DNA of 64,000 bases from Chamaelirium japonicum (taxonomy: Eukaryota > Streptophyta > Magnoliopsida > Liliales > Melanthiaceae): contig OX393551.1 in the NCBI GenBank assembly GCA_947650365.1, forward strand, positions 93,222,697 to 93,286,696, written 5' to 3'. Positions 1-64,000 of this stretch are shown here, piece after piece. Position numbers and translations under genes: made by a program. The number at the start of each line of letters is the position of its first letter. The stretch's first letter is position 1. The notes beneath the pieces were generated by a model. The model saw only the letters and a list, made by a program, of their open reading frames with translations, was not told where the DNA came from and made no database searches.

Positions 1-460
1 CTTTCTCATTCTCCCATCTCACAATACGTTATCAGCAGGAACATTTTGAGCCCAGCTGACTAGTTACACGAAAATAGAGAGAGAAACAAAGTCAAAAGAG
101 AGAATAAGAGAGAAAAGAACAGAGAGATAAACGAAGACAGAAGAGAGAAGAAGTCCTGCTCCAGTCCATTAATTATGGGTTTATGTGTGAAGTAAGAAGT
201 AATCTAAATTCCAAAACTCCACTTCTTAATAATATAATTTACCCTCGCCATTTTCTTCTCACTTCTCCCATGGATTAGGGTTTACCATAGATTGCTTAGG
301 CCTAAAGTATGCTTACCCTATAATAATAAATAATTTATGACCCCTTTAGGGTGGGGCATATTTAATGGCTCTCTCTTTCTTTCATCTCACAACACGTTAT
401 CAGCACGAATATGTTGAGCCCAACTAACCAATCATAAGAAAACGGATTAAGAAACAAAGA
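1..460 (+). mobile_element. Head-to-tail pair of LTR-derived (TRIM-like) units
   Basis: Two copies of the primer-site/leader module start at 27 and 395, giving a 368-bp period in direct orientation. Between them lie, in order, the purine-rich tract, block X (about 160-225), the telobox region (about 280), a TATA-like stretch (about 318) and the leader with GGGTGGGGC (about 350). This order matches an LTR promoter, primer site, gag leader and polypurine tract. Assignment to a Ty1-copia-related TRIM is inference from layout; the copy looks old and diverged, and has no pol. Confidence 0.6.
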
Positions 461-1060
461 CAAAAGTAAAGTTTTGGAATTTAGATTCCTTCTTACTTCA
501 CACCTATACCCATAGCCAATGACTTGGAGCAGGACTTCTTCTCTCTTCTTAATTCATTTATCTCTCCGTTCTCTTTTATCTTCTTTTCTCTTTTCTATGG
601 AGTTTTTGAATTTAGATTCCTTCTTACTTTACAACTATACCCGTGGTCAATAGACTTGGGCAGGACTTTTTCTTTCTTCGTTTATCTTTCTGTCCTCTTC
701 TTTTTTTTTCTCTCTCTTCTATCTTTGTTTCTCTCTTCGTTTTCTTTTGACTGGTCTGTTGGGCATAATATATTAATACTAATAACGTGTTATGAGATAG
801 GAGAAAGAGAGAACCGTCAGACGTGTCGTACCCTAAAGGGGTTGTATAAATATTAAGAAGTGGAGTTTTAGAATTTATATTCCTTCTTACTTCACACCTA
901 TACCCGTGGCGAATAGACTGGAGCAGAACTTCTTATCTCTTCTCTCTTTGTTTATCTCTTTATTCTTCTCTTTTTTTCTCTCTCTTCTGTCTTTATTTCT
1001 CTTTCTGTTTTCTTGTGACTAGTCGGTTGGACTCGACAAATTCAAGCTGATAACGTGTTG
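461..1060 (-). mobile_element. Inverted LTR-derived units (X block and leader, minus sense)
   Basis: At about 455-470 the plus-sense leader runs directly into block X in the opposite sense (GTTTTGGAATTTAGATTCC), so orientation flips here. Minus-sense leader/primer modules lie at about 741-791 and 1011-1060, each preceded by a long pyrimidine tract, which is the polypurine tract of the other strand. The first is followed by the short promoter form (CCCTAAAGGGG then GTATAAATATTAAG). No coding capacity is credible; the open frames are pyrimidine-tract readings. Confidence 0.6.
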
Positions 1061-4382: not shown

Positions 4383-4385
4383 TAT
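4383..4385. repeat. Left TAT target-site duplication of the CACTA element
   Basis: TAT directly precedes CACTATAAG and is repeated directly after TAGTG at 11842-11844. Three-base duplications are the rule for CACTA elements. Confidence 0.85.
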
Positions 4386-4416
4386 CACTATAAGAAAAGA
4401 CAATTTCTACGACACA
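4386..4416 (+). repeat. CACTA left terminal inverted repeat
   Basis: It starts CACTATAAGAAAAGACAATT. It matches the right end at CACTAnAAGAAA plus a looser CAATTTC/AATTGC core, which is typical of the short imperfect ends in this superfamily. Confidence 0.85.
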
Positions 4417-4930
4417 CTAGAGCATCGCCAAAAGTGGTCATATTCATCGCGAAATATCTTTTACGACGTTTCAAATTGCGTCGCCAAGACATCGCCAATT
4501 CCCTGTCTGAGAATACTTTCGACGACGCGATCAAATTGCGTTGCCGAAAGCTTAACTAATCGCGCCGCAATAAGCGTCGCCAATTAAAACAAAAAACATC
4601 ACTAATATAACCTCCTACGTCGCAAAAACAACTAACTTAAGCTTATATATAGAACATTTAGCGACACACAGTATGCATCGCCGGAAATAAAAATATTTGG
4701 CGACGTATATAATAGTGTCCCTAATAACTTCTACCGAATAAATAATAGCGTTGCAGAATACATACTTTGTCGTCGCATAATGTATACTTTTAGCGACGCA
4801 ATAATTATGCCGTCAAATTTATTCATTGATCCAAATGTATATATTAGACGATGCAATCATCACGTTGCAGAATATAAGAATTCAGTGACGTAATGTATTA
4901 CATGCGTTGCCAAAAGACAAATTCTCAATA
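4417..4930. repeat. CACTA left subterminal repeat region
   Basis: Short GC-containing words such as GCGACG, CGTCGC, GTCGCC and ACGACG, some with one mismatch, recur in both orientations in an otherwise AT-rich stretch. In En/Spm elements such subterminal motifs are binding sites for the TNPA-type protein; that role here is inferred from family knowledge. Confidence 0.75.
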
Positions 4931-5087
4931 TTTTTTGCTTAAATTTAAAATTTTTTTCTTGAAATCTTTATACACATGTATTCATCCATATACATTTCAA
5001 TAAAAACAAAAGTATACAAGTATTCATTTAATGTTAAATCAAAATACTAAATTATTCTTCTAAGTATACATGTTTATCCACTCATTT

Positions 5088-5571
5088 CTATGAAGGATCA
5101 GTAATACAAAACCCGACATCCATAACATTAACTGAAGTACTACAAAAAAAAAATTCATGTCTTTGATGATGATGCCACATCTTTTCTGAAATGTCAAACA
5201 TTGCCACAAGCTTCTCTGGAACCTCCACTGGAAGTTTACCAAACCGTGCTACAAGCTTCTCTATCCCCTTGCCTTTAGTCAGCCCCAGTCCACGCCTCAT
5301 GCTCGGATATGAAACTGCAAAAAACATAATGATTTTTTAGTTATTATGCATAACACAATAAAGATAAAAATTTTATTACAAAAAATATTTTACAATTTCT
5401 ACCAACGCTACTGGACTCGGTCGGTGGACTAGTTATATGTTCCTGTGGGGTCAGTATAAGCTGGGATTGTGCAAGCTGGGGTTGGAACCGTGTCCTCTCC
5501 GTTGGAGACACTATAAATGAGAAAGTTGGTGAAAGATTGGTCTGTTTATGTCCAGAAGTTATTCGTGCGAC
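5088..5571 (-). pseudogene. Two-exon En/Spm-type (Transposase_24-like) fragment
   Basis: Two minus-strand coding blocks fit a spliced gene. Exon one (5571-5403) follows a TTTTGTCAG acceptor and encodes a Ser/Thr/Pro/Gln-rich stretch ending ITSPPTESSSV. A GTAGAA donor and TTTTTTGCAG acceptor bound an 88-base intron (5402-5315), and the reading phase is kept across it. Exon two (5314-5088) encodes RGLGLTKGKGIEKLVARFGK followed by LPVEVPEK. That motif (RGxTxGxGxxKL...GKLPVEI/V) resembles the start of the domain found in plant Ptta/En/Spm Transposase_24 proteins. The later part, from about residue 40 of exon two, does not look conserved, and the frame ends at 5088. No upstream start exon was identified. 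The family call is by eye only. Confidence 0.5.
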
Positions 5572-7490
5572 CTGACAAAACAAAATGAGTCACGGATTTA
5601 ACAAAACAATTAAGATACAATGATTTCACTGTAGCAAAGAGATTGCTATGCTTCGCTATATTTTCTATAAAAATTTAAATTTTTTCTAGAGGCTACAGTA
5701 ATTTCATTGCAACAATTTATCACTCTTGGCAATAAGTACCTCATCCAATGGACGGAGCAACATAATATTGATTTTGGCGGTGTACACCCAATCAATATAG
5801 CTGAAAGTCTGAAAAATATGTGCAGTTTGTGTTTGTACCACCTCTTGTTGTTCCATTATCACACTCAAATAGGGGTGTGCATCGGTCCAAAACCGACATA
5901 TTTAGGCAAAACCCAAACCGATCCAACTTGGTCGATTTTGAGGATTTTCAAACCGATTCAAACTTAAAAAATAATAATTGTTATCAAATCATTAGGCCTA
6001 AATATGATATTTAATTGATTTTGAGCAATTTGTGACTTATATTGGATTATTCTTCCTTTCTCTTTTTCGGAGAAAATTTTATCTACTTCAAAAACAATAC
6101 CACCAATCCACTTCAGAAACCATATATATACTTGTAAAGAAACCCATAAAATTCCACCCCAAGATAACTAAATTTAAAAATAGTAAAACCCTTGAGGAAG
6201 AGAGTTCTAGAACTAAATAATGAAGCAAAGACTCGAAGGAGAGATTGGGACATCAAAGAACAAGCAAAGAAAATAGCTAGAGGAATCACCTCCTCCAAAG
6301 CTCCTATGTAATTACTCTTCATCAACTATAACACACTAAACCCTAACTCCTTTGTCTTATCCAAACGTGCATGAAAAGCAGACAACTAACAACCCTTGAT
6401 CAAAATCTCATCCAACCTTACTACCTACTGTAAAAGATTGTATGCTCTAGGGGGACACCAAATCACACCTTACCTTATTTCTCAAACACAAGACGTGAAA
6501 GTTACAGTTTTACCTTAAGTCAAGTAAAACACGAGTTTTTTAGTAAACGTTCGCTACGCGAATCTTTCCCGATTTTTTGAAAAAGTCACAATTTTGTGAA
6601 AAAACATGATTTTTTTGCGGGTGAATCCCGATTTATATAGTTTAATCCTGATTAATCATGTTTTATCCCATCATGTACAACTCAAAAAACCTATTAGAAC
6701 ATTTTATATAAATATATTTTAAAACTCGATAGGTCTTTTCCTGACTCTTTCCCTACTTTTTTCCAATTTTTCTGACTTCTCCCCTAGCCGATTTTTTCCC
6801 GATTTTTAACTTGGTAAATACGCACCGATTGTTTTTTAACGCATTTTATATTCCTACACCGTCTTTGCTCCATTTACTTTTATGCAATGTCCTCTACTTT
6901 CCATGTGATTTTCTATTCTCGATAACCTTAGTAGGAAACTTTTAAGTCCTCTTCATTAAGGCAGTCAGAACCTTGGTGGAAGTGAGTTCCCAAGCTTCTA
7001 ACAAGCAATTGATCCTTATTTGTATCGGTCAGTCCAGATAAACCAAGTGGATCACACTTGAGATCCCATCGAGAAAACCAATTAATTGCATACGACGTAT
7101 AATAACAGGATCATGTCATTACGGTTTCAATGTAGTTTGCTGCTGCTCCTTTCTTGACATCTAGATAGATACTATGCTAAATTACGACATATAACATTTA
7201 AGTTGATTTTAGATGAGTCAAGTGAACTGAAATTCTTATGCAAATTGAAATAAATTAAATGGAATTGAAGATCAAGAAACAATAAGGCTGAAAACTTGAA
7301 AAGGAAATCATGAATGTCAGATGCAGATATAAACCGATAAACAATTCAGATAAAGGATACCTTCAATGCATCTATAATTTTCTCTCTTTCCAAACCCATA
7401 CAATACTAGTAAGATATTACACATAACAATATGCACTAGTTTCACCAAAATAAGCTCTTCTCCAAGCCCAGATAGAAAAGAAAATCTTAC
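5572..7490. other. CACTA interior with no recognisable gene
   Basis: This stretch is AT-rich. At 5866 it contains AGGGGTGTGCATCGGTCC, which resembles the tip of plant hAT-type miniature elements, but no matching opposite end was found. A minus-strand open stretch near 5710-5860 begins MEQQEVVQTQTAHIF and has no recognised domain. The rest shows no splice-consistent or conserved coding signal that I can see. Confidence 0.45.
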
Positions 7491-7529
7491 AAAATACAAG
7501 ATGCAGGTTGAATAGGTGTTTGCTGACTT

Positions 7530-7691
7530 TCAATTGCGGATCCACAGCGATTCAAGAGATAAGGGCTTCTCATTTCTTGAATGTGCAGTTTGAGCACGTG
7601 GAGGAGGTGCGTAAACAGTTATTGGAAGAACTGAAAAAAGAAAGCTCGCTTGCACCAAATCAGCAACTATCTCATGGTGATCACTCTGTAC
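7530..7691 (-). pseudogene. Unidentified exon-like fragment
   Basis: On the minus strand a plausible acceptor (ATGCATTTATTCAG) is followed by 53 open codons that start VQSDHHEIVADLVQASFLFS and end SLESLWIRN before a stop. The composition is unlike the AT-rich surroundings and looks protein-coding. The plus strand over 7508-7699 is also open and reads a Glu/Lys-rich helical peptide (EEVRKQLLEELKKESS), so the true strand is uncertain. It may be a captured host-gene exon; I do not recognise the gene. Confidence 0.3.
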
Positions 7692-8080
7692 CTGAATAAA
7701 TGCATATGGTTATGGTTAAACAGATGCCATAAATGACAAGACCTACTCATATATTAGATCAGCTTAACAAACCTTACTCCAGATGCAAGAGTCAAGGCAT
7801 AAGAGAATAGCGAGTGTACGTGCACACATGCACTCACTATACATACATACATACATGCAACAATGATCCACTCTTAAGATAACAACAAACAAAATTGTAT
7901 GTGATTTTTCCTCTTTCTTATGTGCTCCACTCCTAAGATAACAAATGTCACAGCCATGTGACTACAAATTCTATTTTTCATCACAACAAAATAATTTGGA
8001 GGAGAAAATGTAAGAAGAGTCCAAATTTCATACACATTATCCCAATGATCCTACCCCATCCCAATGTGTGTGTGTGTGTG
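7692..8080. other. Intergenic-like CACTA interior with microsatellites
   Basis: The stretch holds a (CATA)n run near 7839-7857 and a (TG)n run at about 8065-8083. No gene or other element is seen. Confidence 0.6.
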
Positions 8081-8250
8081 TGTTAGAAGTGGGTTTATAA
8101 GCATTTTCCTATTTTTCAGACCATGTCTCAATTTTGTGAAAAATAATAATAATTGAAGAAAAAACTATGGCTTCTTTTCTTCTTTTTGAATATATCAGAA
8201 TCCTATCGAACAGTAGATAAGGGCTACCCAACACTCCCCTCAAACCAGTA
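8081..8250 (-). mobile_element. Possible Ty1-copia 3' LTR relic
   Basis: On the minus strand TTTGAGGGGAG is followed directly by TGTTGGGTAG, which matches the polypurine tract and LTR start commonly seen in plant Ty1-copia elements. Going leftwards, the candidate LTR would end in TTCTAACA at 8081, giving about 153 bp with TG...CA ends. It is a fragment only, old and broken; the family call is weak. Confidence 0.3.
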
Positions 8251-8589
8251 ACCATTAGGGTTTGATTCGATTTGGTCCAAGTAGAGTTTGGTGTATCTTG
8301 AGCTTCATAGTCTTAGAGAAGAAATAATCTTGGTCACTTGTTACCATGTAAGCAATATCAATAATCGATAATATGTAGGATGAGTGCTTGAAAAATGTAA
8401 TATAGAATCGATAGATGCTCCAAGTATAACCAATCAAAGAATTATTACTCTCGAGTCTCGACCATATATTATAGCTCAAACAAATCGGAAATAGCTAAGT
8501 ACAGTGTTCTAATAGCCTCAGTTCCAAAAGAGTACACATCTCCAAATGGCTTGACACAATATGGGAGGTGCTCTCTCTCTCTCTCTCTC
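8251..8589. other. Unassigned stretch ending in a (CT)n run
   Basis: Scattered open stretches occur on the minus strand, but no domain can be defended. A (CT)n run occupies about 8571-8589, just before the primer-site-like motif of the next relic. Confidence 0.4.
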
Positions 8590-9440
8590 ATTACAAGTGG
8601 TAACAGAGCAACGATCTTGCCATGTTAACCAAGTTCCTACCTAGAAAAAATAAAGGAAATATTCATCAAAATCCGTAAACTCGTGGTTCAAGCACAAGAG
8701 AACCTCATCAAAATTAAAAAGGACGTCAACAAACTTGGACTCTTATTTTTTGAGCAACAAGCACAAGAGATTGAAGATGTGGAATCCGAGAAGAAGGTGG
8801 GGGCTGTGAAGCAATTCGAAAAGTTGTTTCAATCACCAAATGTTCACAAAACTGAGTGGTAGTGTTGGATGGGAAATGGACCGGCGAGACTACAACACAG
8901 TTTCATATGCTCTGAAAATAAAATCATATGGGCCATTGGAATGTGAAGCATCAAGTGAAAGCCTCTTCTATCATACAATGGAGTTTTTGGACTCGAATCG
9001 GCGCATTAACATCAGTACACAAAGGATTGATATTTTGATTGTGTCCCCACCCGCACCTAACATATCCAAGAAGATCCTAACCCTGCAGTTATTTTTAAAC
9101 AAAATTGAAGAAACAGTTTCCCAACCTTGGGGACAATATTGATTGGAGAGAGGGGCAAATGGCAATGTCACGTGCGTGGATCTGATGACAAGAGTATGTT
9201 GCTATTTGTTGTTTTCTTCCTATCTGTTATTTATTTGGAAAATTTAATAAGGATAAGGAGTATGCCGTTTGAGTTTATTGAGATAGAGTTTGTTAGTACT
9301 TAGTAGTGGGTCTAATCTGTTTGTTGAAAGCCACATCTCAATAAGTCTCTTGTAATCTTGAGTGATGAATAAGAAGAAAATTGATGTTTGTCGTATGATT
9401 CTAAGGAGGTTGACCCCCTCGAAGCGGTTCTCTAACACTT
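8590..9440 (+). mobile_element. LTR retrotransposon relic (Gypsy-like), heavily reduced
   Basis: TGGTAACAGAGC at 8598-8609 closely matches the initiator-Met-tRNA primer site TGGTATCAGAGC and follows a TTACAAG spacer, as in many plant elements. Downstream is a Lys/Glu/Gln-rich gag-like start region (about 8640-8840). Near 9170-9440 a stretch including TAAGTCTCTTGTAATCTTG and GATGAATAAGAAG resembles LTR end sequence. Only pieces are present, so the element is broken and old. The superfamily is tentative. Confidence 0.4.
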
Positions 9441-9904
9441 CTTTCCTCTTTTCTTTTATTTTTGTGCTCTCTTTCTATTGGGTATGAGACATTTTCCCTC
9501 CAGACCTGGGGTGCGAATTATCACAATCATGGAGGTAGGTATACCCTACGATCTTGGTCGTTTTGCTTATATCAGCCATAAATATTTCTTATGTGATGTT
9601 GTAGGTATTGTAGTGCATGAAGATAAGGAGAGTTTTGCAGAACCCAACAGAATCTAGTTGAATTTTGACCTACCAGTAAATTTGTGTTTCTATTTCATTC
9701 CTTTGTTTGATGTCTCCTTGCCATCACCAACAATCGAATATAAAAAGTAAGAACTAGAAGCGGAATTACTTGACTACACTAGTCCAAGGGGGAGACTTTA
9801 CCCCAAACCAAATCGCCACCCCCTTTCCCAAATTATGGGATATTCAACAGTAATTTAGAGGGGCAGTCTAAATTGCAGCAAGGGCAAAACCCTAGGCTGA
9901 GTAC
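9441..9904. other. Unassigned stretch, including the start of ATG2 intron 1
   Basis: No element or gene is recognised in 9441-9830. The part next to 9904 is, on the minus strand, directly downstream of the ATG2 exon donor (GTACTCAGCC) and is probably captured intron sequence. Where the captured host DNA ends on this side cannot be fixed by eye. Confidence 0.45.
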
Positions 9905-10108
9905 CTTCTGGTTGAGGAAATCGACATTGAGGGCGAGGTCAGTAAGATGGATGGTGCCGTGGGAGAGCTGGACGTCGAGCTGGTCGAGGTCGATGTCACC
10001 GAGGATTAGATCTCCGAGACGCTTCTTCAGCAGGAACTTGCAGACGCGCTTGATCGCCCAATGGGAGAACATCGCCTCCGCAGACCTCGCGAAATCCCAC
10101 GGGAACAT
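9905..10108 (-). pseudogene. ATG2: Captured first exon of autophagy gene ATG2
   Basis: Sixty-eight codons start [20 protein letters not shown] and continue [48 protein letters not shown]. This is the N-terminal (chorein) start of plant ATG2. ATG2 is a very long lipid-transfer protein that moves phospholipids from the ER to the growing autophagosome membrane. The exon ends after NQK at a GT donor (9904), which is a normal splice boundary. The next ATG2 exons are not seen to the left; unrelated relics lie there instead. The piece is therefore a gene fragment carried inside the CACTA element, close to its right end. The frame is open and the key residues look kept, which suggests recent capture. 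It could encode only a short peptide. Confidence 0.85.
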
Positions 10109-10680
10109 CTCACCGCCGGCGACGGCGGCGGGGGGCTCCTCCTCGTCTTCCTTCTAGAAAATCTCAGCGGGTTGAGGGGAGGGGTTTGCTTCCATCGGAC
10201 GCCAAGAGCTGGGAGGGTGCGGGGAAACGAAGGAGAGACGGGACGAGAAGGAAAGTGCCTTTGGGGGAGAAGCTTGCAGTAATAAAGGGACTTTGTAGCC
10301 GGAGGGAAACCACTACAAAGTATCTACTCGCTCATATCCGGAGGGGGGCGGCGGCCGGGCTTAGGGTCAAGGGGAGCAGCGGCCATTGGGGGTGGAGATC
10401 GGGTAGAGAGAGGAGAGAGATCCGAGAGAAAGAGTGAGAGATCGGGTGAGAGGGAGGAGATCAGAAGAGATTGGGAGAGAGATCAGAGAGATGAGAAAGA
10501 GAGGGGGATGAGAGAGAGAGAGGGGATGGGAGTTGGGTTGGGTCGGGTATGGGTTCGGGTGAGATGAGAGGGAGAGGGAGAGAGAGAGGGAGAATTGGGT
10601 TGGGTTTTGGGGATGGGTTCGGGTTTGGGATTTGGTTTTTGGTTTTTTCTTTATTTATTTAGGTTTTTGTTTAGTTTAGT
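10109..10680 (-). promoter_or_regulatory. Captured ATG2 5' leader and promoter-proximal region
   Basis: Upstream of the ATG2 start on the minus strand is a GC-rich segment (CCGCCGCCGTCGCCGGCGG next to the ATG), then a long CT-rich tract (GA-rich on the plus strand, about 10390-10600). CT-rich leaders are common in plant housekeeping genes. The base composition contrasts sharply with the AT-rich element around it, which supports capture of a host promoter/leader together with exon 1. Confidence 0.6.
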
Positions 10681-10782
10681 TTTTTTTTTTTCTCAATCCC
10701 GGTCGAGCTCGACTCGTGCTCGACTCGCGTCGCACCGAGGCGTGCCCGTACGCGAATCTCGCTGGGTCTGATAGACTCGCCA

Positions 10783-10855
<73 letters not shown>

Positions 10856-11089
10856 GCATTCATGCCTCGCCTCAGTACACGTGCTGGTGTAACGACACCT
10901 CCAACGTAGCCTCGCGACCCGTACCTGGAACCCACTGCTTGGTCCCGCTCGATTACAACCAACAACATCACCGCCAAATATATTAAAATAATATTATATA
11001 GAACTGGGTTGTTCTGTGCAAAAATACTCTGGAATGTCGGTCGTTACAAAGACGGTCGTGGGTTTATAAATTCTTGCATTCTCTTAACG
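10681..11089. other. CACTA interior with (TA)n microsatellite
   Basis: A GC-rich stretch with repeated CGAGCTCGACTCG-like words (about 10694-10730) is followed by an uninterrupted (TA)n run at 10789-10850, then another moderately GC-rich stretch. No coding feature can be supported; the long open frame across it is an artefact of the (TA)n run. Confidence 0.55.
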
Positions 11090-11810
11090 ATTCTATGACG
11101 TATGAAAAACATCGCCATAAAAAATTGAGAATATGCGTAAGGAATTTTGCGACGCATAACTATGTCGTCGATTGTAACTAGCAGCATACTTAGTCTCATC
11201 GCTAAAACTTTTAATTTTTCGTGACTAAATTTATTTCGTCACAAAAAGTAAACAATTTAGCGACATCTTATTGTGTCGCCAAATAGCTATTTATCGTCAC
11301 CAAAAAGTCCCCTTAAAGGCGCGAAAATTTTATTTTACGGAATGATTCTGCGACGCACGTACGACGTCGCTATAAAAAATTAAGAATTTGCGATGTCATA
11401 AACAAGAATTTCACAACGCACAATTACATCACCAATTGCTACTAGCAGCGTACACTTAGTCCCGTCGCCAAAATTTTTAATTTTTCGCAACATAATTTTT
11501 TTCGTCGCTAAACATAAATAATTTTGCAACGCATAACTATGTCGCCGATTGCAACTAGCAGCATACTTAGTCTCGTTGCCAAAACTTTTAATTTTTCGTG
11601 ATATAATTTATTTCGTCACTAAACGTAAATAATTTAGCGACGTCTAACTGCGTCGCCAAATAGCCATTTACCGTCGCCAAAAAACTTTATCCTCCTAGGC
11701 ACAAACTCAATTATGCTAGCAAACTTTTAGCGACACAATTTTGTGACGAATAAGATATGACGTTGATAAAGGCAACTTTTAGCGACTGAAAAGGATATGT
11801 GTCGTAGATA
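11090..11810. repeat. CACTA right subterminal repeat region
   Basis: Dense GCGACG, CGTCGC and TCGTCGC words recur in both orientations. Two internal direct repeats share CTAGCAGC...CTTAGTC and TTAATTTTTCG (near 11190, 11450 and 11550), so this end has itself expanded by duplication. Confidence 0.75.
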
Positions 11811-11841
11811 AGCGTCGCTAAAGGTGCAATTTCTTGTAGTG
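11811..11841 (-). repeat. CACTA right terminal inverted repeat
   Basis: The minus strand reads CACTACAAGAAATTGCACCT, matching the left end in the CACTAnAAGAAA core. Confidence 0.88.
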
Positions 11842-12067: not shown

Positions 12068-13016
12068 AAACATGCCCCACCCTAAAGGGGTCATATTTTA
12101 TTTATAGGGTAAGCTTACTTAGGGCCTAAGCAATCTATGAAAAACCCTAATCTATGGGAGAAGAGAGAAGAGAACGGAGAGTTTTAATTATATTATTGAG
12201 AAGTGGAGTTTTGGAATTTAGATTCCTTCTTATTTCATACCTATACCCATGGCGAATGGACTGGAGCAGGACTTCTTCTCTCTGCTCTATTCGTTTATCT
12301 CACTGTTTTCTTCTTTCTTCTTCTCTCTCTTCTATCTTTGTTTCTTTCTCTGTTTTCTTATGTTTGATCAGCTGGGCTCGACATATTCATGCTGATAACA
12401 TATTGTAAGATGGGAGAAAGGGAGAGTCATCAAACATGCCCCATGCTAATTAGATTTCTTCTTACTTCACACCTATACCCGTGGCCAATGGGTTGGAGCA
12501 GGACTTCTTCTATCTTCTCTCTTCGTTTATTTCCCCGTCTCTTCTCTCTTCTTCTCTCTCTTCTATCTTCCTTTCTCTCTCTGTTTTCTTGTGACTGGTC
12601 GGTTGGGCTCGATATGTTCGTGCTAATAACGTGTTTTGTGATGAAGAAAAAGTGAGTCGTCAAACGTACCCCACCCTAAAGGGGTCATATAAATATTGAG
12701 AAGTGGAGTTTTGGAATTTAGATTCTTTCTTACTTTATACTTATACCAGTAGTGAATGGATTATAGTAGGACTTCTTCTCTCTTCTCTCTTTATTTATCT
12801 CTCCGTTATCTTCTTTTTTCTTCTCTCTTCTGTCTTCGTTTCTCTCTGTTTTCTTATGACTGGTCGGTTGGGCTCGACATGTTCATGCTGATAACGTGTT
12901 GTGAGATAAGAGAAAGAAAAAGCCATCAAACGTGCTCTACCCAAAATGGGTCATATATTATTTATAGGATAAACTTACTTAGAGCCTAAGCAATCTATAG
13001 GAAATACTAATCCATG

Positions 13017-13535
13017 GGAGAGATCCGACAGTGGACAGCCATCCGATCGAATGATCTCAAAACAGTTATAATATTTTTAATTTTTTAAAGAATAATATAA
13101 ATTCTTTTTAAAGCAAAAAATTCGAGTGTGCCTCATCTTCCTTCTTTACTTCCTATTATTTAATTAATTTAATTTTTTTAATAAATTAAATAATTAAATA
13201 ATTAAATAAATATTTAATTTTCTATATAACTAAATATTTAAATTATTTAAATAATTTATTTATTTTTTAAATAATAAAATAAATAATATTAATTTTATTA
13301 TTTAAAAAAAATAAGTTATTTAAAAAAACATTTTGTTATTTATATATTCAAATAATTACCTTATTATTTAAATAATAAGTAAATAGTTATTTAATTATTA
13401 TTTTATTTTATTACTTAATTAAATAATTTTTTTTTTATTTATTTCAATTAATATTTTATAATTTAATAAAAAAATTTTAATTTTTTAATTACATAGTAAT
13501 TTATTTAAATTATTATTTTTTGAACTATATCTTCT
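13017..13535. repeat. AT-rich N block, shorter form
   Basis: It starts with the conserved entry (GAGATCCGACAGTGGACAGCC, then GATCGAACGATC-like words), passes into TTAATTAA-type sequence and rejoins the array at AACTATATCTTCTTC. The matching copy is at 35675-36180 with the same exit point. Confidence 0.6.
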
Positions 13536-14282
13536 TCTCTCATTTCTGTCTTCGTTTCTCTCTCCGTTTTTTTATGACTGGTCAGTTAGGCTCGACATGT
13601 TAGTACTGATAATATGTTTTGAGATGGAAGAAAGAGAGAGCCATCAAACGTGCCCCACCCTAAATGGATCATATATTATTTATGGGGTAAGCTTACTTAG
13701 GGCCTAAGCAATCAATGGTAAACCCTAATCCATGGGAGAGATCCGATGGTGGATAGCCATCCGATCTAACGTGCACCACCCTAAAGGGGTCTTATTAATC
13801 ATTTATTTAAATAATTATTAAATCAATTCTCTTAATTAGTAAGCTTACCTTATAAATATTTAATTATATATAATTGATTATCATCACGGGTATAGGTATG
13901 AAGTAAAAAGGAATTTAAATTCTAAAACTCCACTTCTTAATAGTATCATCTCAACGTTATTATGATTATCATAGTAATATACTATAATTTTTTTAATTAA
14001 ATTAATTAATTATTTATTTATTAAATAATTTAAATAATTTAATAATTAAGTTTACTAATTAACGTGTTGTTAGATGGGAGAAATAGAGAGCCATCAAACT
14101 TGCTCCACCCTAAAGGGGTCGTATAATATAATTAAATCTCTTCGTTTTCTTCTCTCTTCTCCCATGGATTAGGGTTTCCCATAGATTGCTTAAGCCATAA
14201 GTAAGCTTACTCTATAAATAATAAACGACCACTTAAAAGTGGGGCACATTTGACGGCTCGCTCTTTCTCTCATCGCACAATA

Positions 14283-14460
14283 CTTACCCTATAAATAATA
14301 TATGACCCCTTAAGAGTAGGGCATGTTTAATGGCTCTCTCTTTCTCCTATCTCACAACATGTTATCAACACGATAATATTTAGCCCAGCTGACCAGTCAC
14401 ATGAAAATGGAGAGAGAAATAAAGACAGAAGAGGAGTTTTGGAATTTAGATTCCTTCTTA
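14283..14460 (+). mobile_element. Plus-sense promoter/leader running into inverted block X
   Basis: TATA (CCCTATAAATAATATATGAC), leader, primer-like motif and ATG leader end in GACAGAAG and run directly into GGAGTTTTGGAATTTAG, block X in the opposite sense. This is one clear example of a joint seen at many places in the window. Confidence 0.6.
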
Positions 14461-17400
14461 CTTTACACTTATACCCGTGGTCAATGGACTAGAGCAAGAC
14501 TTCTCTCTTCTCTTTTTATTTTTCTCTCTGTTCTTTTCTTTCTTCTTCTCTCTCATCTCTCCGAAGAGAAAAGAGAAAAGAAGTATTTCTCCAATCTATT
14601 CGCTATGGGTACAGGTATAAAGTAAGAAGTAATCTAAATTTCAAAACTCCACAGAAGAGAGAGAAAAAGAGAGAATAGAACGAAGAGATAAACGAAGACA
14701 GAAGAGAGATATACGACTAGTCGGTTGGGCTCGATAATAAGAAGTGGCACACCCGAATTGCTTCGGCCCTAAGTTCAAATATTAAGAGATACCCTAATCG
14801 ATGAGAGAAGCAAGAAGAGAACAGAGAGATTTAATTATATTATTAAGAAGTAGAGTTTTGTAATTTAGATTCCTTCTTACTTAATACCTATACCCATGGA
14901 TAATGGACTGTAGCAAGACTTCTTCTCTCTTCTTTCTTTGATTATTTCTCCATTCTCTTCTTTCTTCTTTTTTTTCTCATAACATGTTATCAGCATGAAC
15001 ATGTCGAGTCAAGCCGACCACTATTTAGAATTTAACTAATTTATTTAAATATATTATTTAAATTATTTATCTCTCTATTCTCTTTTCTCTTCTGTCTTTG
15101 ATTCTCTCTCCGGTTCCTTGTGACTAGTTGGTTGGGGTCGATATGTTCATACTGATAACGAGTTGTAAGAAGAGAGAAGAAGAGAGAAAAGAAGGGAGAG
15201 ATAAACGAAGAAAGAATAGAGAAGAAGTACTGCTCTAGTCCATTCGCCTTGGGTAAAGGTGTGAAGTAAGATAGAATCTAAATTCCAAAACACCACTTCT
15301 AAATAATATAATTAAATCTCTCCATTCTCTTCTCTCTTCTCCCATGGATTAGGGTTTCCCATAGATTGCTTAGGACCTAAGTAAACTTACCCTATAAATA
15401 ATATATGAACCCTTTAGGGTGGGGCACGTTTGACGGCTCTTTCTACTCCCATCTAATAACATGTTATCAATACAAACATATCGAGCCCAGATGACCAGTC
15501 GTAAGAAAATAGAAAGAGAAACGAAGACAGAAGTGGAGTTTGGAAATTTAGATTCTATCTTACTTCACACCTATACCCATAACCAATAGACTGGAGTAGG
15601 ACTTTTTCTCTTCTCTTTTAGTTTATCTTTCCATTTCTTTTCTCTTCTTCTCTTATTCTGTCTACATTTCTCTATCCGTTTATTGAGGGAAGAAGAGGAG
15701 TCTAACGAAGACAGAAGAGACATAAGAAGCGAGAAGAGAATGGAGAGATAAATAAAGAGAGAAGAGAAAGCTTCACACCTATACCCGTGGCCAATGGACT
15801 GGAGTAGGACTTCTTCTCTCTTCTCTTTTTATTTATCTCTCCGTTCTCTTCTCTCTTCTTTTTTCTCTTCTATCTTCATTTCTCTATCCGTTTATAGAGA
15901 GAAGAAGTGGAGTTTAACAAAGATAGAAGAGAGATAAAAAGCAAGAAAAGAACGGAGAGATAAATAAAGGGAGAAGAGAGAATATGTCCTGCTCCAGTCC
16001 ATTGGCCACGGGTATAGGTGTGAAGTAAGAAGGAATCTAAATTCCCAAACTCTACTTTTGTTTTTTTTTCTCTCACTGTTTTCTTGGGATTGGTCAGTTG
16101 GCTCGATATATTCATGTTGATAAAGTGTTGTGAGATGGGAGAAAAAGAGAGCCATCAAACGTGCCGCACCCTAAAAAGGTCGTATATTATTTATAGGTAA
16201 GCTTACTTAGATACTATGCAAAACCCTAATCCATAGAAAAAGAGAGAAGAGAATAGAGAGATTTAATTATATTATTAAGAAGTAGAGTTTTAGAATTTAG
16301 ATTCCTTCTTACTTCACACCTATACCCATGGCGAATGGACTAGAACTAGACTTCGTCTCTCTTCTCTCTTTGTTTATCTCTTCGTTCTCTTCTCTCTTCT
16401 CACAACACATTATCAATACGAACATGTTGAGCCTAATTGACCAGTCATAAGAAAACAGAAAGAGAAATGATCATAGAGAGAGAGAAGATAACAGAGAGAT
16501 AAACAAAGAGAGAAGAGAGAAGAAGTTCTGCTCCAGTTCATTGGCCATGGGTATAGCTGTAAAGTAAGAAGGAATCTAAATTCCAAATTTCCACAGAAGA
16601 GAGATATGAAGAGAGAAGAGAACGAAGAGATAAATAAAGAGAGAAGAGAGAAGAAGTCCTACTCCAGTTCATTAGCCATGGGTATAGGTGTGAAGTAAGA
16701 AGGAATCTAAATTCCTAAACTCCACTTCTGTCTTTGTTTCTCTCTCCATTTTCTTGTAACTAGCCGGCTGGGCTCGATATGTTCATGCTGATAAGCTTAC
16801 TTAGGGCCTAAGTAATCTATAGGAAATCCTAATCCATGGGAGAGATCCGATGATGGACAGCCATCCTTCTTATGTTACACCTATACCCGTGGCCAATAGA
16901 ATTGAGTAAGACTTCTCTCTTCTCTCTTCGTTTATCTCTCTGTTCTCTTCTCCCTTTTTCTTCCATCTCATAACACGTTATCAGTACGAACATATTATGC
17001 CCAGTCGACCAGTCACAAGAAAACAGAGAGAGAAACAAAGTCAGTAGAGAAAGAAGAAGAGAGAAGAGAACGAAGAGATAAACGAAAAGAGAAAAAAGAA
17101 AAGAGAAAAGAGAAAAGAGAAAAAGTCATGCTCAAGTCCATTGGCCATAGATTTAGGTGTGCAGTAAGAAGGATGGATGTCCACCGTCGGATCTCTCCTA
17201 TGGATTTGGATTTCCCATAGATTGCTTTGGCCCTAATTAAGCTTTTCTTATAAATAATATACGACCCCTTTAGGGAGGGACATGTTTGACGGCTCTTCCT
17301 TTCTCCCATCTCAGAACACGTTATCAGTACGAAAATATCGAGCCTAGCCGACCAGTCACAAGAAAATAGATTCATTCTTACTTCACACCTATACCTGTGG

Positions 17401-19579
17401 CTAATGGACTGGAGCAGGAAATCTTCTCTCTTCTCTCTTTGTTTATCTCTCTGTTCTCTTCTCTCTTCTTCTCTCGCTTCTGTCTTTGTTTCTCTCTCCA
17501 TTTTCTTATGACTGGTCGGCTGGGCTCGATATATTCATGCTAATAATATGTTATGACAAGTGAGAATAAAACGGAGAGATAAACAAAGAGAAGAGAGAAA
17601 AAGTCCTACTTCAGTCCATTCACCATGGTATATGTGTTAGGTAAGAATGAATCTAAATTCCAAAACTACACTTCTCAATAATATAATTAAATCTCTCTGT
17701 TTTCTTATCTCTTCTCCCATGGATTAGGATTTCTCATAGATTGGTTAGGCCCTAAGTAAGCTTACCCTATAAATAATATATGACCCCTTTAGGGTAGGGC
17801 ACGTTTGATGACTTTCTCTTTATCCTATCTCATAACACGTTATCAGTACGAACATGTCGAGTCCAACCGACCAGTCGCAAAAAAACGGAGGAGAAACGAA
17901 GACAGAAGAGAGAGAAGAAGAGATAAAAGAATTGAGAAATAAACAAAGATAGAAGAGAGAAGAAGTCCTGCTCTAGTCCAATGGCCACGGGTATAGGTTT
18001 GAAGTAAGAAGGAATCTAAATTCCAAAACTCTACTTCTTAATTTTTATACGACCCTTTATGGTGGGGCACGTTTAACAGCTCTTTCTCCTATTTCATAAC
18101 ATGTTATCTACACAAACATGTCGAGCACAGCTGACCAGCCCCAAGAAAATGGACAGAGAAACAAAGACAAAAGAGAGAGAAAAAAAGAGAAAAAAATAGA
18201 GAGGTAAACAAAGAGAGAAGAAGTCCTGCTCCAGTCCATTGGCCACAGGTATAGGTTTGAAGTTAGAAGGAATCTGAATTCCAAAACTCCATTTCTCAAT
18301 AATATAATTATATATCACTGTTCTTTTTTCTCTTCTCTTATAGATTAGGGTTTCCTATAAATTGCTTAGGCCTTAAGTAAGCGTACCCTATAAATAATAC
18401 ACGACCACTTTAGGGTGGGGCATGCTTGACGGCTCTCTTTTTCTCCCATATCATAACATGTTATATGCACGAACATGTCTAGCCCAGCCGACCAATCGCA
18501 AGAAAATGAAGAGAGAAACGAAGACAGAAGAGAGAAGAAGAGAGAAGAGAGCGGATAGATAAATGAAGAGAGAAGAAGTCATGCTCTAATTCATTGGCCA
18601 CGGATATAGGTGTAAAGTAAGATGGAATCTAAATTCCAAAACTCCACGTCTGTCTTCGTTTCTCTCTCTATTTTCTTACGACTGGTCGACTGGGCTCGAT
18701 ATGTTCATGATTATAACATGTCTAGTTTAATTAAGAAGGAATCTAAATTCCAAAACTCTACTTCTCAATAATATAATTAAATCTCTCTATTCTCTACTCT
18801 CTTCTCCTATGGATTAGTATTTTTAATAGATTGCTTAGGCCCTAAGTAAGCTTACCCTATAAATAATATTCAACCTTTTTAGGGTAGGGCACGTTTGACG
18901 GATCTCCCTTTCTCCCATCTCACAACACTTACCCTATAAATAATATACCACCCCTTTAGGGTAGGGCACATTTGACAGTTCTCTCTTTCTCCCATCTTAT
19001 AACATGTTATCTTTTGTTTCTTTCCCTGTTTCTCTCCCCGTTGTCTTTGTTTCTCTCTCTTTATCTTATAGTATAAAATAAAATAATTAAGTATTGATAG
19101 AAAAGAGATAGAAAATTATTTTAAACTAGAGAGAGCAAGACTTCGTCTCTCTTCTCTCTTCGTTTATCTCTCCGTTCACTTCTCTCTTTATCCCATCTCA
19201 CAACATGTTATCAGCATGAATATAACGAGCCTAGCCGACCGGTCAAAAGAAAACAAAGAGAGAAACGAAGACAAAAGTAGAGTTTACAAATTTAGATTCC
19301 TTCTTACTTCACACCTATATCCATGGCCAACGGACTGGAGCAGGACTTCTTCTCTCTTATATCTTTGTTTATCTCTCTATTCTCTTCACTCTCTTCTGTC
19401 TTTGTTTCTCTCTCCATTTTTTTGCGACTGGTCGGCTGGGCTCGACATATTCGTGCTGATAATGTATTGTAAGATGGGAGAAAAAGAAAGTCGTCAAGCG
19501 TGCCCCACCCTAAAGGTATCGTATATTATTTATAGGGTAAGCTTACTTAGGGCCTAAGCAATCTACGAGAAACCCTAAT

Positions 19580-19965
19580 CCATGGGAGAGATCCGACGGT
19601 GGACAGCTATCCGATCGAACGATCTTAAAATAGTTGTAATGTTTTATATTTTTTTAAAGAAAAATGAAAAATAATTTTAAAACAAAAAATTCGAGTGTGC
19701 CTCATCTTCTTTTTTTACTTCCTATTATTTAATTAATTTAATTATTTAATAAATTAAATAGTAAAATAATTAAATAATTAAATAAATATTTAATTATTTT
19801 TTCTCTTCTTATATTATTTTATTACTATGATAATTAAGTGGAGTATTGTTACAATAATTTTTTTAATTAAATTAATCGTTATATTAAAACGAAAAGAGAA
19901 GAGAATTTACTATGATAATCATAATAACGTTGAGATGATACTATTGAGAAGTGGAGTTTTTGAAT
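19580..19965. repeat. AT-rich N block, shorter form
   Basis: Its entry is GAGATCCGACGGTGGACAGC and its exit GATACTATTGAGAAG. An internal TGATAATTAAGTGGAGTATT segment is shared only with the copy at 43885-44245, which supports the higher-order duplication. Confidence 0.6.
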
Positions 19966-20039
19966 TTAGATTCCTTTTTACTTCACACCTATACTCGTGG
20001 TGAATGGACTGGAGCAGGACTTCTTCTCTCTTCTCTCTT

Positions 20040-26485: not shown

Positions 26486-26490
26486 TTTTA

Positions 26491-60380: not shown

Positions 60381-62789
60381 GAGAAAAGGAGTTTTGGAAT
60401 TTAGATTCCTTCTTACTTCACACCTTTACCTGTGGCTGATGGATTTGAGCAGGACTTCTTCTCTCTTCATTTATCTCTCCATTCTCTTCTCTCTTCTTAT
60501 CTCTCTTCTGTGGAGTTTTGGAATTTTGATTCCTTCATACTTCATAATTACTTCACACCTATACATATGGCCAATAGATTGGAGTAGAACTTGTTTTCTC
60601 TTCTCTCTACGTTTATCTCTTCGTTCTTTTCTCTTGTCTTCTCTCTTTTTTGTCTTCGTTTCCCTCTCTATTTTCTAGTGACTGGTCGATTGGGAACGAA
60701 ATATTCTTGCGAATAATATATTATAAGATAGGAGAAAGAGAGAGCCATCAAATATGCCCCACCCTAAAGGGGTCATATATTATTTATAAGGTAAACTTAG
60801 TTAGGGCCTAAGCAATCTATAGGAAACCCTAATCTATGGGAGAAGAGAGAATAGAATAGAAAGATTTAATTATATTATTGAGAAGTGGAGTTTTGGAATT
60901 TTGATTCCTTCTTACTTAATAACTATACCCGTGGCGAATGGACTGGAGCAAGACTTCTTCTCTCTTATCTCTTCATTTACCTCTCCGTTCTCTTCTATCT
61001 CATTCTCTCTTATTCTCTCTCTTCTGTCTTTATTTCTCTCTCCGTTTTTTTATAACTGGTCTATTGGGCTCGACATGTTTGTACTGATAACGTATTGTAA
61101 GATGGAGGATTGCTTATTTATTTTATTTATTTTATTTATTTTATTTATTTTATTTATTTCAATTAATATTTCTTTAAATATTATAAAGTTTATCATTTCT
61201 TTAAATATTTAAATAGTATCATTTCAATATTATTATTTAAATATTTAATTATAAAACATTATATATTTATTAAATAATTTATATAAATTTATAAGTAAAA
61301 AAAATATTTTATTTTATTTCTTCTCTCCTTATTTATCTCCCCGTTCTCTTTCCTCTTCTTCTCTCTCTTCTGTCTTCGTTTATTGCACCGTTTTCATGTG
61401 ACTGGTCGGCTAGGCTCGACATATTCGTGCTGATAACGTGTTGTGAGAAGAGAAAAGAGAACGGAAAGAACAATGAAGAAAGAAAAGAGAAGAAGTCTTA
61501 CTCCAGTCCATTCACCACGGGTATAGGAGTAAAGTTAGAAGGAATCTAAATTTCAAAACTCCACTTCTCAATAATATAATTAAATATCTCTGTTTTTTTC
61601 CCTATTCTCCCATAGATTAGGGTTTCCCATAGATTGCTTAGGCCCTAAGTAAGCTTACCCTATAAATAAATATGATCCCTTTATAGTGGGGCATGTTTGA
61701 TGGCTCTCTCTTTCTCCCATCTCATAATTCGTTATCAGTATGAACATGTCGAGCCCAGCCGACCAGTCGTAAGAAAACGAAGAAAGAAACGAAGATAGAA
61801 AAGAGAGAAGAAAAGAGAAGAGAATGGAGAGATAAACAAAGAGAAAAGAGAAAAGAAGTCCTAGTCCAGTCCATTCGCCATGGGTATAAGTGTGAAGTAA
61901 GAAGGAATCTAAATTCCAAAACTCCAATTCTCAATAGCATCATCTCAAAGTTATTACGATTATCATAGTAAATTCACAAACTTTCTTAATTTTAATTAAA
62001 TAATTAATTTAATTAAAAAAATAATAGCAACATTATCAATACGAAAAGAGAAGAAATCCTGCTCCAGTCCATTGGCCATGGGTATACGTATGAAGTAAGA
62101 AGGAATCTAAACTACAAAACTCTACTTCTCAATATTTATATGACCCCTTTAGGGTGGGGCATATTTGATGGCTCTCTCTTTCTTCCACCTCACAATACGT
62201 TATCAGAATGAACATATTGAGCCCAGCCTACCAGTCAAGTGAAAACGGAGAGAGAAACGAACACAGAAGCGAGAGAAGAAGAGAGAAGAGAAAATAGAGA
62301 GAGAAACAAAAATAGAAGAAAGAAAAGAAGAAAGAAGAGAATAAAGAGATAAACGATGAGAGAAGAAGTCTTGCTCTAGTCCATTAGCCATAAGTATAGG
62401 TGTGAGGTAAGATGGAATTTAAATTTAAAAACTCAACTTCTCAATATTTATACGACCCCTTTAGGGTGGTGCATATTTGACGGCTCTCTCTTTCTCCTAT
62501 CTCACAACACATTATCAGTATGAACATGTCGAGCCTAACCTATCAGTTATAAGGAAACGGAGATAGAGGAAAAACAGAAGAGAGAGAATAAGATAGAAGA
62601 GAACGAAGAGATAAACGAAGAGAAAAGAGAGAAGAAGTCCTACTACAGTCCTTTGGCCACGGGTCTAAGTATCAAGTAAGAAGTAATCTAAATTCCAAAA
62701 CTCCACTTCTCAATAATATAATTAAATATCTCCATTCTCTTCTCTCTTTTCCCATCGATTAGGGTTTCCCATAGACTACTTAGACCCTA
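60381..62789. mobile_element. LTR-derived units; linker repeat shared with 3869-4020
   Basis: Minus-sense leaders lie near 60670, 61050 and 61390, and plus-sense ones near 61730, 62200 and 62510. The linker GATTGCTTATTTATTTTATT at 61107 matches 3869 but carries extra copies of TTTATTTAT, expanding the run to about 61155. No gene is seen. Confidence 0.6.
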
Positions 62790-64000
62790 AGTAAGCTTAC
62801 TCTATAAATAATAAATAATATACGACCCCTTTAGGGTGGTGCACGTTTGACAGCTCTCTCTTTCTCCTATTTCATAATATGTTATTAGTACGAATATGTC
62901 GAGCCCAGCTGACCAGTCGTAAGAAAACGGAGAAAGAAATGAAGACATAAGTGAAGTATTGGATTAGAGTAGGACTTCTTCTTTCTTCTCTCTTTATTTA
63001 TCTCTCCATTTTCTTCCCTCTTCTTCTCTCTCTTCTGTTGAGTTTTTGAATTTAGATTCCTTCTTACTTTACACCTATACCCGTGACCAATGGATTGGAG
63101 CAAGACTTCTTCTCTCTTCTCTTTTTGTTTATCTCTCTGTTCACTTCTCTCTTCTTCTCTTTCTTCTGTCTTTATTTCTCACTCTATTTTCTTATAACTG
63201 CTCGACTGGGCTCGATATATTCGTGCTGATAACGTGTTATGAGATGTGAGAAAGAGAGAGCCATCACACGTGCCCTACCCTAAAGGGGTCGTATAAATAT
63301 AAAGAAGTGGAGTTTTGGAATTTAGATTCTTTCTTACTTCACACTTATACCCATGGCCAATGGATTAGAGCAGGACTTGTTTTCTCTTCTCTCTTCGTTT
63401 ATCTCTCCGTTCTCTTCTATCTTTTGCTCTTTCTTTTATCTTTATTTCTCTCTCCGTTTTCTTGTGACTAGTCAGTTGGGCTCAATATGTTCGTGCTGAT
63501 AACGTGTTATGAGAAAAGAGAAGAGGACCTAAATAAACTAATATAAATCTCTCTTGTTTTAATAATTAAATATAAGTATGTCCTTATCTTCTCTCTCTTC
63601 TGTGGAGTTTTAGAGTTAAGATTCCTTATTACTTCACACCTATACCTGTGGCCAATGGACTGGAGCAATGCTTCTTCTCTGTTCTCTCTTTGTTAATCTC
63701 TATGTTCTCTTCTCAATTCTTCTCTCTCTTCTCCATTCTCCATTCTCTTCTCTCTTCTTCTCTCTCTTCTATGGAGTTTTGGAATTTAGATTCCTTCTTA
63801 CTTCGTACTTATACCCTTGGCCAATAGATTGGAGCAAGACAACTTTTGCTCTTCTCTCTTCATTTATCTCTCCGTTCTCTTCTCTTTTCTACCTAAATAA
63901 TTTAAATAAATAATATAATTATTTAATTGAGGAAAAAACTAAGACAGAAGAGAAAGAAGAAGAGAGAAGAGAACAGAGAGATAAATAAAAAGAGAAGAGA
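62790..64000. mobile_element. Q/P block cluster, running off the window end
   Basis: The order CTATAAATAATAAATAATAT (62810), leader (plus, 62883), GACATAAGTGAAGTATTGG, leaders (minus, near 63190 and 63470), TAATAATTAAATATAAG linker (63563), X blocks and TACCTAAATAATTTAAATAA (63890) parallels 300-1500 and 22340-23300. The array continues beyond the window. Confidence 0.6.

What the first reader, a model, noticed from the sequence alone, without database searches (positions are those of the whole stretch)
1..64000. More than 100 copies of a TRIM-like LTR derivative form a mixed-orientation field
A module with telobox, TATA box, GGGTGGGGC leader, GTTATCAGCACGA, an ATG leader and a polypurine tract recurs roughly every 490 bases across 56 kb in both orientations, with no pol anywhere. 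The order is that of an LTR promoter, primer site, gag leader and polypurine tract. The motif next to the primer position recalls the LTR/primer joint of plant Ty1-copia (Ale/Retrofit-type) elements, by memory only. An LTR derivative amplified into a satellite-like field of this density is unusual.
Basis: partly seen in the sequence, partly recalled or inferred. Interest (0 to 1): 0.85.

Follow-up and report, generated by a model that had tools for sequence, protein, structure and literature searches.

The report
Scrambled field of miniature retrotransposon pieces
A 64,000-base stretch of what looks like plant DNA is packed with over 130 decayed copies of what appears to be the control region of a small jumping element, pointing randomly in both directions; it is a large and unusually scrambled example of a known kind of repeat.

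Summary
GTTATCAGCACGA occurs 111 times at up to 2 mismatches (0.4 expected), and 133 of 158 hits of its 131-bp module cover it, 68 forward and 65 reverse. Five short modules cover 46 kb; a 7.5-kb CACTA-type transposon interrupts them. The LTR reading gains support, but the lineage is corrected: the motif fits a primer site for an inosine-edited half tRNA-Ile, which Neumann et al. 2019 report for the Bianca lineage of Ty1/copia, not Ale/Retrofit (tRNA recalled). Inferred LTR ends give 232 + 132 = 364 bp, beside a measured tandem period of 363. TRIM membership is unproven: no target-site duplication or single intact element was found. It is not a classical satellite: orientation is random (66 runs, 67.5 expected), neighbours are no more alike than distant copies, and inferred LTR ends are rarely breakpoints. 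Junctions recur and scrambled blocks up to 3.7 kb are duplicated. Most substitutions in P are C-to-T decay, heaviest at CG. Best reading: a dead, methylation-decayed field of Bianca-type miniature elements, grown by rearrangement and block duplication.

The parts
1..64000 (.). the field: 491 hits of five repeat modules, reaching both window edges, so the true extent is unknown
41888..42007 (+). example direct unit: R module (purine tract, then inferred LTR start at 41942)
   Evidence: letters read
42013..42114 (+). example direct unit: X module (telobox GGATTAGGGTTT, TATA box)
   Evidence: letters
42115..42245 (+). example direct unit: P module (leader, inferred LTR end at 42173, primer site 42175-42187 exact, ATG, start of purine tract)
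42246..42367 (+). example direct unit: following R module, with the next inferred LTR start (TG) at 42306
   Evidence: letters
41942..42173 (+). inferred LTR of the example, 232 bp (TG and CA both read TA in this decayed copy)
   Evidence: ends inferred from the module consensus (TG at R61, CA at P58-59; conservation); letters
42174..42305 (+). inferred internal part of the example, 132 bp, holding primer site and purine tract
   Evidence: inference; LTR plus internal = 364, a TRF period is 363
19181..19523 (.). example inverted dimer: P+ (19181-19277), R- (19277-19401), P- (19393-19523)
   Evidence: counts of this form
17367..21033 (.). scrambled block duplicated in direct orientation at 41700-45331 (3,697 aligned columns, 85.4% identical)
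14786..16794 (.). scrambled block duplicated at 38866-40904 (86.1%)
12450..14283 (.). scrambled block duplicated at 35112-36936 (81.9%)
40154..42243 (.). large imperfect palindrome (aligns with its own reverse complement, 79.4%)
33028..33768 (.). very AT-rich stretch (95% AT) between Y and T modules, possible long form of the LTR's first part
4386..11841 (+). CACTA-type DNA transposon inserted between an X and a P module; ends CACTATAAGAAA / CACTACAAGAAA, TAT on both sides

Best explanation
The field consists of decayed pieces of a small non-coding Ty1/copia-type retrotransposon whose primer site is of the Bianca kind (half tRNA-Ile with the wobble base edited to inosine). Shown: module anatomy, random orientation, recurring junctions, duplicated scrambled blocks, C-to-T decay; primer complementarity is shown against a recalled tRNA. 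Inferred: the element had LTRs of about 232 bp and an internal part of about 132 bp and was copied with the proteins of an autonomous Bianca element. Direct, truncated and inverted-dimer forms arose by recombination at short purine/pyrimidine matches, and these forms were then multiplied together in a short time by block duplication and inversion. After that the field was silenced by DNA methylation and has been decaying. It probably has no present function.
For: The single mismatch is the first anticodon base, A in the gene and inosine in the mature tRNA, which pairs with C. Neumann et al. 2019 state this primer type for Bianca and give half-tRNA-Ile for no other lineage (passages). The CA of CACAACA ends one base before the site, and the TATA box lies about 70 bp upstream (module consensus). 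Direct runs R-X-P-R occur 15 times (9 + and 6 -); TRF gives a period of 363. The primer site is the second least changed of 119 13-base windows of P for substitutions other than C-to-T/G-to-A: 20/1079 against 331/9636 elsewhere, Fisher p 0.004, a post hoc test in which the lowest window lies at the module's end. Growth: of 396 adjacent junctions, the usual order (P|R, X|P, R|X) makes up 152 in its three main bins and four further recurring classes (P|R inverted, R|P, R|R, R|T) 91; 35.2 kb lie in self-matching blocks of 1 kb or more; upstream context clusters on the P tree (32 changes, shuffled mean 41.9, 0 of 200 shuffles as low). Inferred LTR ends as breakpoints: 4 of 158 P hits and 1 of 214 R hits. 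Decay: 957 of 1308 substitutions in 83 near-full P copies are C>T/G>A; rate 0.279 at CG, 0.157 at CHG, 0.127 at CHH, against 0.021 for A>G/T>C.
Against: No target-site duplication, no single element with two LTRs and no gag or pol were found; a related autonomous element could not be sought, as no plant collection is held. LTR ends are inferred from the nearest TG and CA. The inferred whole element (596 bp) is over the usual TRIM size quoted in the Wukong paper (<540 bp), though a review allows TRIMs up to 4 kb. The tRNA sequence is recalled; searches for parts of it in papers, viral contigs and genome contigs gave 0 hits. Downstream context clusters only weakly on the tree (25 changes, shuffled mean 27.9, 14 of 200 as low), and the tree is poorly resolved: 31 of 114 branches with support of 80 or more. 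Module borders were set by eye at recurring junctions, so the tally of breakpoints at module ends is partly by definition.
Confidence: 0.66

Rival explanations
1. Extrachromosomal DNA of the element (reverse-transcribed cDNA or circles) was joined end to end in random orientation and integrated as one or few concatemers, like a natural transgene array; later block duplications enlarged it. (It shares the LTR origin with the best explanation, so the odds overlap.)
For: Orientation runs are random (66 observed, 67.5 expected, sd 5.7). P copies are about equally diverged at all distances (mean 0.186 below 1 kb, 0.187 at 20-26 kb, 0.195 beyond 26 kb), with no excess of near neighbours: 4 of 83 nearest relatives within 2 kb, 5.1 expected. 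Junctions show short matches such as AGAAG/CTTCT. The endogenous caulimovirid review says tandem arrays and multicopy rearrangements could arise from integrated concatemers or from recombination, and links the bias to (TA)n repeats to break repair (passages).
Against: The same rearranged junctions recur (29 P|R inverted, 26 R|P), and long scrambled blocks are duplicated, so much of the scramble was copied rather than made independently. 22 of 83 nearest relatives lie at 20-26 kb, 11.2 expected, as block copying predicts.
Confidence: 0.17
2. A head-to-tail TRIM array grown by unequal crossing-over, as in Wukong or Cassandra.
For: Direct runs and 363-, 270- and 131-bp tandem periods exist. [quoted passage not shown]
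Against: Orientation is random, not head to tail; neighbours are not homogenised. Wukong LTRs are usually in one orientation.
Confidence: 0.08
3. Many independent insertions of the element into one another (nested hot spot).
For: Mixed orientation is what nesting gives.
Against: Inferred LTR ends are rarely the breakpoints (4 of 158, 1 of 214), and junctions recur at the same internal points.
Confidence: 0.05
4. A plant satellite or host promoter-derived repeat unrelated to retrotransposons, whose primer-like motif is chance.
For: No element with two LTRs, no coding part found, no target-site duplication found.
Against: 13-base complementarity in the position used by half-tRNA primers, with the one mismatch at the edited base, next to a CA end, plus TATA and purine tract in LTR order.
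Confidence: 0.1
5. A rearranged endogenous caulimovirid.
For: Such loci form multicopy rearrangements in plants, with a bias to (TA)n repeats.
Against: No viral domain in the 20 frames scanned. The tRNA-Met type site TGGTATCAGAGC has one match with 1 mismatch, inside the CACTA element, and none in the field; that caulimovirids use tRNA-Met is recalled.
Confidence: 0.02

Closest known systems
Bianca lineage of Ty1/copia (REXdb, Neumann et al. 2019, PMC6317226; passages seen)
   Same: primer site for an edited half tRNA-Ile
   Different: no coding domains found here; lineage judged by the primer site alone
Wukong TRIM of maize (PMC4528315; abstract, first part of Results and Discussion seen)
   Same: non-coding, short LTRs (230 bp there, about 232 inferred here), short internal part, multi-LTR tandems
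   Different: up to 7 LTRs, usually one orientation, mostly with target-site duplications; here 133 primer-site copies in random orientation and no duplication seen
Cassandra tandem arrays (PMC7215508; abstract and first part of Results seen)
   Same: LTR-internal-LTR arrays of a TRIM
   Different: Cassandra has 5S rRNA sequence and the site TGGTATCAGAGC; here no Rfam match at gathering score and no such site in the field
Retrotransposon-derived satellites of Lathyrus (PMC7004042; passages seen)
   Same: amplified repeat derived from an LTR retrotransposon
   Different: there expanded tandem repeats of the Ogre 3' untranslated region; here LTR, primer site and purine tract, without head-to-tail order
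Endogenous caulimovirid arrays (PMC10377300; passages seen)
   Same: multicopy rearrangements, bias to AT-rich sites
   Different: no viral domain in the frames scanned here

Membership tests
TRIM (terminal-repeat retrotransposon in miniature) | two direct terminal repeats of 100-250 bp around an internal part of 100-300 bp (as quoted in the Wukong paper) | tested here: inconclusive
   232 + 132 bp by inferred ends; 15 direct R-X-P-R runs, but no single element with two LTRs
TRIM (terminal-repeat retrotransposon in miniature) | primer site next to the LTR end | tested here: met
   one base after the CA; 133 of 158 P hits cover it; complementarity to a recalled tRNA-Ile
TRIM (terminal-repeat retrotransposon in miniature) | polypurine tract before the second LTR | tested here: met
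   54 of the first 57 bases of the R consensus are purines, 3 bases before the TG (consensus)
TRIM (terminal-repeat retrotransposon in miniature) | TG...CA ends | tested here: inconclusive
   T and G kept in 0.96 and 0.63 of near-full R copies, C and A in 0.60 and 0.96 of near-full P copies; losses sit at the G and C, as C-to-T decay would give; the ends themselves are assumed
TRIM (terminal-repeat retrotransposon in miniature) | 5-bp target-site duplication | tested here: inconclusive
   only 4 of 158 P hits end at positions 57-61 and 1 of 214 R hits starts at 59-63, so there were almost no ends to test; flanks of these five were not compared
TRIM (terminal-repeat retrotransposon in miniature) | no coding domains | tested here: met
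   no retroelement domain in the 20 frames scanned; longest frame 180 aa
Bianca lineage of Ty1/copia | primer site for edited half tRNA-Ile | tested here: met
   (tRNA recalled)
Bianca lineage of Ty1/copia | placement by RT, RH and INT proteins | not testable with these tools
   no pol found in the window; no genome held
   TGGTATCAGAGC at up to 1 mismatch is absent from the field; one match inside the CACTA element
Cassandra TRIM | 5S rRNA sequence in the LTR | tested here: not met
   no Rfam family at gathering score in the window
classical satellite DNA | head-to-tail copies homogenised with neighbours | tested here: not met
   random orientation runs; 4 of 83 nearest relatives within 2 kb, 5.1 expected
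retrozyme (LTR with hammerhead ribozyme) | hammerhead motif in the LTR | tested here: not met
   no Rfam family at gathering score in the window

The most novel reading that the evidence does not exclude
The field is a natural concatemer: extrachromosomal DNA of a Bianca-driven miniature element was joined end to end in random orientation and captured by the chromosome in one burst. The result is a platform dense in teloboxes and GAGA stretches, motifs that (recalled, not looked up here) can attract Polycomb proteins in plants.
Probability: 0.15. Interest if true: 0.65.

Novelty: new variant of a known kind. Interest (0 to 1): 0.42.

Why it matters
The longest TRIM tandem in the papers seen here has 13 LTRs (a roughly 6-kb PCR product, so a lower bound), and Wukong tandems are usually in one orientation. 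A field with 133 primer-site copies, random orientation and no local homogenisation suggests that LTR-derived repeats can reach satellite density by a route other than plain unequal crossing-over. It would also extend the half-tRNA-Ile primer type to a non-coding miniature element, and the junction catalogue makes the growth mechanism testable with long reads.

Tried and rejected
Tandem repeat finder alone splits the field into 305 overlapping rows (150 shown), so modules were mapped instead. The Ale/Retrofit assignment was rejected on primer type. tRNA genes and Rfam families in the window: none. The primer motif in papers: 2 and 10 hits, and 3 for a shorter core together with 'retrotransposon'; judged by their titles only, none opened. 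Paper searches for half-tRNA primers and for isoleucine tRNA with copia listed nothing of use; the primer-site survey came. Copies elsewhere: viral contigs and genome contigs, all 0; these collections are not of plants, so this says little. That the inverted orientation comes from the 25-bp inverted repeat X15-39/R8-32 of the typed module sequences (longest in 200 letter shuffles: 12) was considered; the commonest inverted junctions lie elsewhere (P131|R126), so the repeat may help but does not explain them. Target-site duplications as the origin of the field: too few breakpoints at the inferred LTR ends. Similarity by distance as a sign of local homogenisation: none. Weak Pfam matches below the curated cut-offs (SYCP2_ARLD, MSL3_chromo-like, LAMB4, Glyco_hydro_7; TMEM164, Folate_carrier) were set aside as chance in biased sequence. 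Precedents were sought only in open-licence papers (listings, of which the papers named under Closest known systems were opened in part); I make no claim that this is not in print.
Full report
What was checked. The window looks like plant DNA (a CACTA element with a captured ATG2 piece, half-tRNA-Ile primer site, CG/CHG decay); no genome is held for it, so all tests are internal or rest on papers. Mapping five short modules with blastn gave 491 kept hits over 46,041 of 64,000 bases. What is left in gaps of 30 bases or more (75 gaps, 15,893 bases) is one 7.46-kb transposon and otherwise largely AT-rich DNA with some unmatched module remnants.

Anatomy. X (102 bp) holds a telobox in the reverse sense (TTAGGGTTT) and the TATA box. 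P (131 bp) holds the GGGTGGGGC leader, a pyrimidine stretch, CACAACA, the primer site, an ATG two bases later and the start of a purine tract. R (126 bp) holds the rest of the purine tract, then TCC-TG and a conserved tail. T and Y flank AT-rich stretches of up to about 750 bases that sometimes stand between R and the telobox. If the LTR begins at the TG in R (position 61) and ends at the CA in P (position 59), it measures 66+5+102+59 = 232 bp and the internal part 72+60 = 132 bp, together 364. TRF finds a period of 363, and 15 direct R-X-P-R runs exist, 9 forward and 6 reverse. These ends are inferred.

Primer site. The only mismatch is the first anticodon base. In the mature tRNA this A is edited to inosine, which pairs with C. 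Neumann et al. 2019 (PMC6317226, passages) report that Bianca elements have primer sites for this edited half tRNA-Ile, that half-tRNA primers occur only in Osser, Bryco, Gymco-II (tRNA-Met) and Bianca (tRNA-Ile), that TAR is predicted to self-prime, and that most elements of the other Ty1/copia groups use the 3' end of tRNA-Met. I did not see their letters for the Bianca site. The common tRNA-Met site is absent from the field at up to one mismatch. The lineage rests on the primer site alone.

Arrangement. Of 133 P hits covering the primer site, 68 are forward and 65 reverse, with 66 orientation runs against 67.5 expected for random order. Upstream neighbours in the copy's own sense: X same 53, R same 30, R inverted 27, gap 19, other 4. 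Downstream: R same 87, R inverted 34, gap 10, other 2. Of 396 adjacent junctions, grouped in 8-base bins, the main bins of the usual order are P|R 79, X|P 47 and R|X 26; the commonest others are P|R inverted 29, R|P with X skipped 26, R|R 19 and R|T 17. Inverted dimers occur at 15 places: 6 read P+ R- P- and 9 read P+ R+ P- on the + strand, the two being each other's reverse complement. Breakpoints at the inferred LTR ends are rare: 4 of 158 P hits and 1 of 214 R hits.

Block duplications. Self-comparison shows scrambled blocks copied whole: 17367-21033 with 41700-45331 (85.4%), 14786-16794 with 38866-40904 (86.1%), 12450-14283 with 35112-36936 (81.9%), and others; three self-palindromes of about 2 kb (14846-16729, 38926-40839, 40154-42243; 73-79% identical) are present. 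35,207 bases lie in self blocks of 1 kb or more, leaving out blocks of 85% AT or more. On a tree of 116 P copies the upstream context clusters (99 labelled copies; 32 changes, shuffled mean 41.9, 0 of 200 as low), the downstream context weakly (110; 25, mean 27.9, 14 of 200), and orientation not at all (116; 38, mean 38.6, 94 of 200). Some rearranged forms were therefore inherited, while orientation was reshuffled. Copies are about equally far apart at every distance, and only 4 of 83 nearest relatives lie within 2 kb (5.1 expected); 22 lie at 20-26 kb (11.2 expected, largest of 500 shuffles 24). This looks like a short period of growth followed by independent decay.

Decay. In 83 near-full P copies, 957 of 1308 substitutions from the majority are C>T or G>A, with rates 0.279 at CG, 0.157 at CHG and 0.127 at CHH, against 0.021 for A>G/T>C; R (135 copies; 1013 of 1726) shows 0.306, 0.203 and 0.117; X (34 copies; 147 of 279) has no CG in its majority sequence and shows 0.368 at CHG and 0.109 at CHH. 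This is the mark expected of long cytosine methylation in the plant contexts; methylation itself was not measured. Leaving these changes out, copies differ from the majority at about 3.3% (P), 4.3% (R) and 3.8% (X) of sites, so the field is probably younger than its raw divergence suggests. The primer site changes little outside C-to-T decay (20/1079 against 331/9636; second of 119 windows, the first lying at the module's end). This was looked at after the fact and the windows overlap, so it is a hint that the copied source elements were under constraint, not a proof.

Inserted transposon. A CACTA-type element lies at 4386-11841, with ends CACTATAAGAAA and CACTACAAGAAA, TAT on both sides, inside an X|P junction; the paralogous stretch near 61668 lacks it. 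A frame at 9833-10150 on the minus strand matches autophagy protein ATG2 (Pfam PF13329, E 7e-9, 34.4 bits, under the curated cut-off of 50), a likely captured gene piece.

Comparison. Wukong (PMC4528315) has 230-bp LTRs, a 72-bp internal part, and multi-LTR forms with up to seven LTRs, usually in one orientation. [quoted passage not shown] Lathyrus satellites derive from Ogre 3' repeats (PMC7004042). Endogenous caulimovirids form arrays and rearrangements (PMC10377300). The present field shares the kind of unit with the first two and the scrambling with the last, and differs in scale, random orientation and primer type. I file it as a new variant of a known kind, with membership in TRIM open.

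Limits. No plant collection or genome could be searched; the field runs off both window ends; the LTR ends, the tRNA sequence and the Polycomb idea rest on inference or memory; module borders were set by eye from recurring junctions, which makes breaks at module ends partly true by definition. Telobox and GAGA counts (40 AAACCCTA against 1.9 expected; 843 GAGAGA against 384) follow from the repetition and say nothing about function by themselves. An assembly artefact was not excluded, though copies differ by some 8 to 32% pairwise (identity 0.68 to 0.92 among P copies), which a simple duplicated-assembly error would not give.

Noticed in passing
4386-11841: CACTA-type DNA transposon of 7,456 bp with subterminal GCGACG-like repeats, inserted in the field; the paralogous stretch near 61668 lacks it.
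   Followed up: partly
9833-10153 (-): Frame matching the start of autophagy protein ATG2 inside the CACTA element, probably a captured gene fragment.
   Followed up: partly
8570-9450: Possible small LTR-type element nested in the CACTA element: TGGTAACAGAGC at 8598 is one mismatch from the tRNA-Met primer site (0.18 expected by chance in the window). Against it, no pair of direct repeats of 22 bases or more was listed there.
   Followed up: partly
14225-14300, 18878-18945, 30002-30076, 52592-52668: Four places where a short piece from before the TATA box to about CACAACA is repeated with the break at or within a few bases of the inferred LTR end; TRF gives periods of 77, 77 and 75 for the first three.
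   Followed up: no
X15-39 with R8-32, e.g. 42027-42051 and 42253-42277: 25-bp inverted repeat between the typed module sequences of X and R (imperfect in single copies such as this one), able to promote inversion of the piece between them.
   Followed up: partly
10785-10850: Long AT dinucleotide run inside the CACTA element.
   Followed up: no
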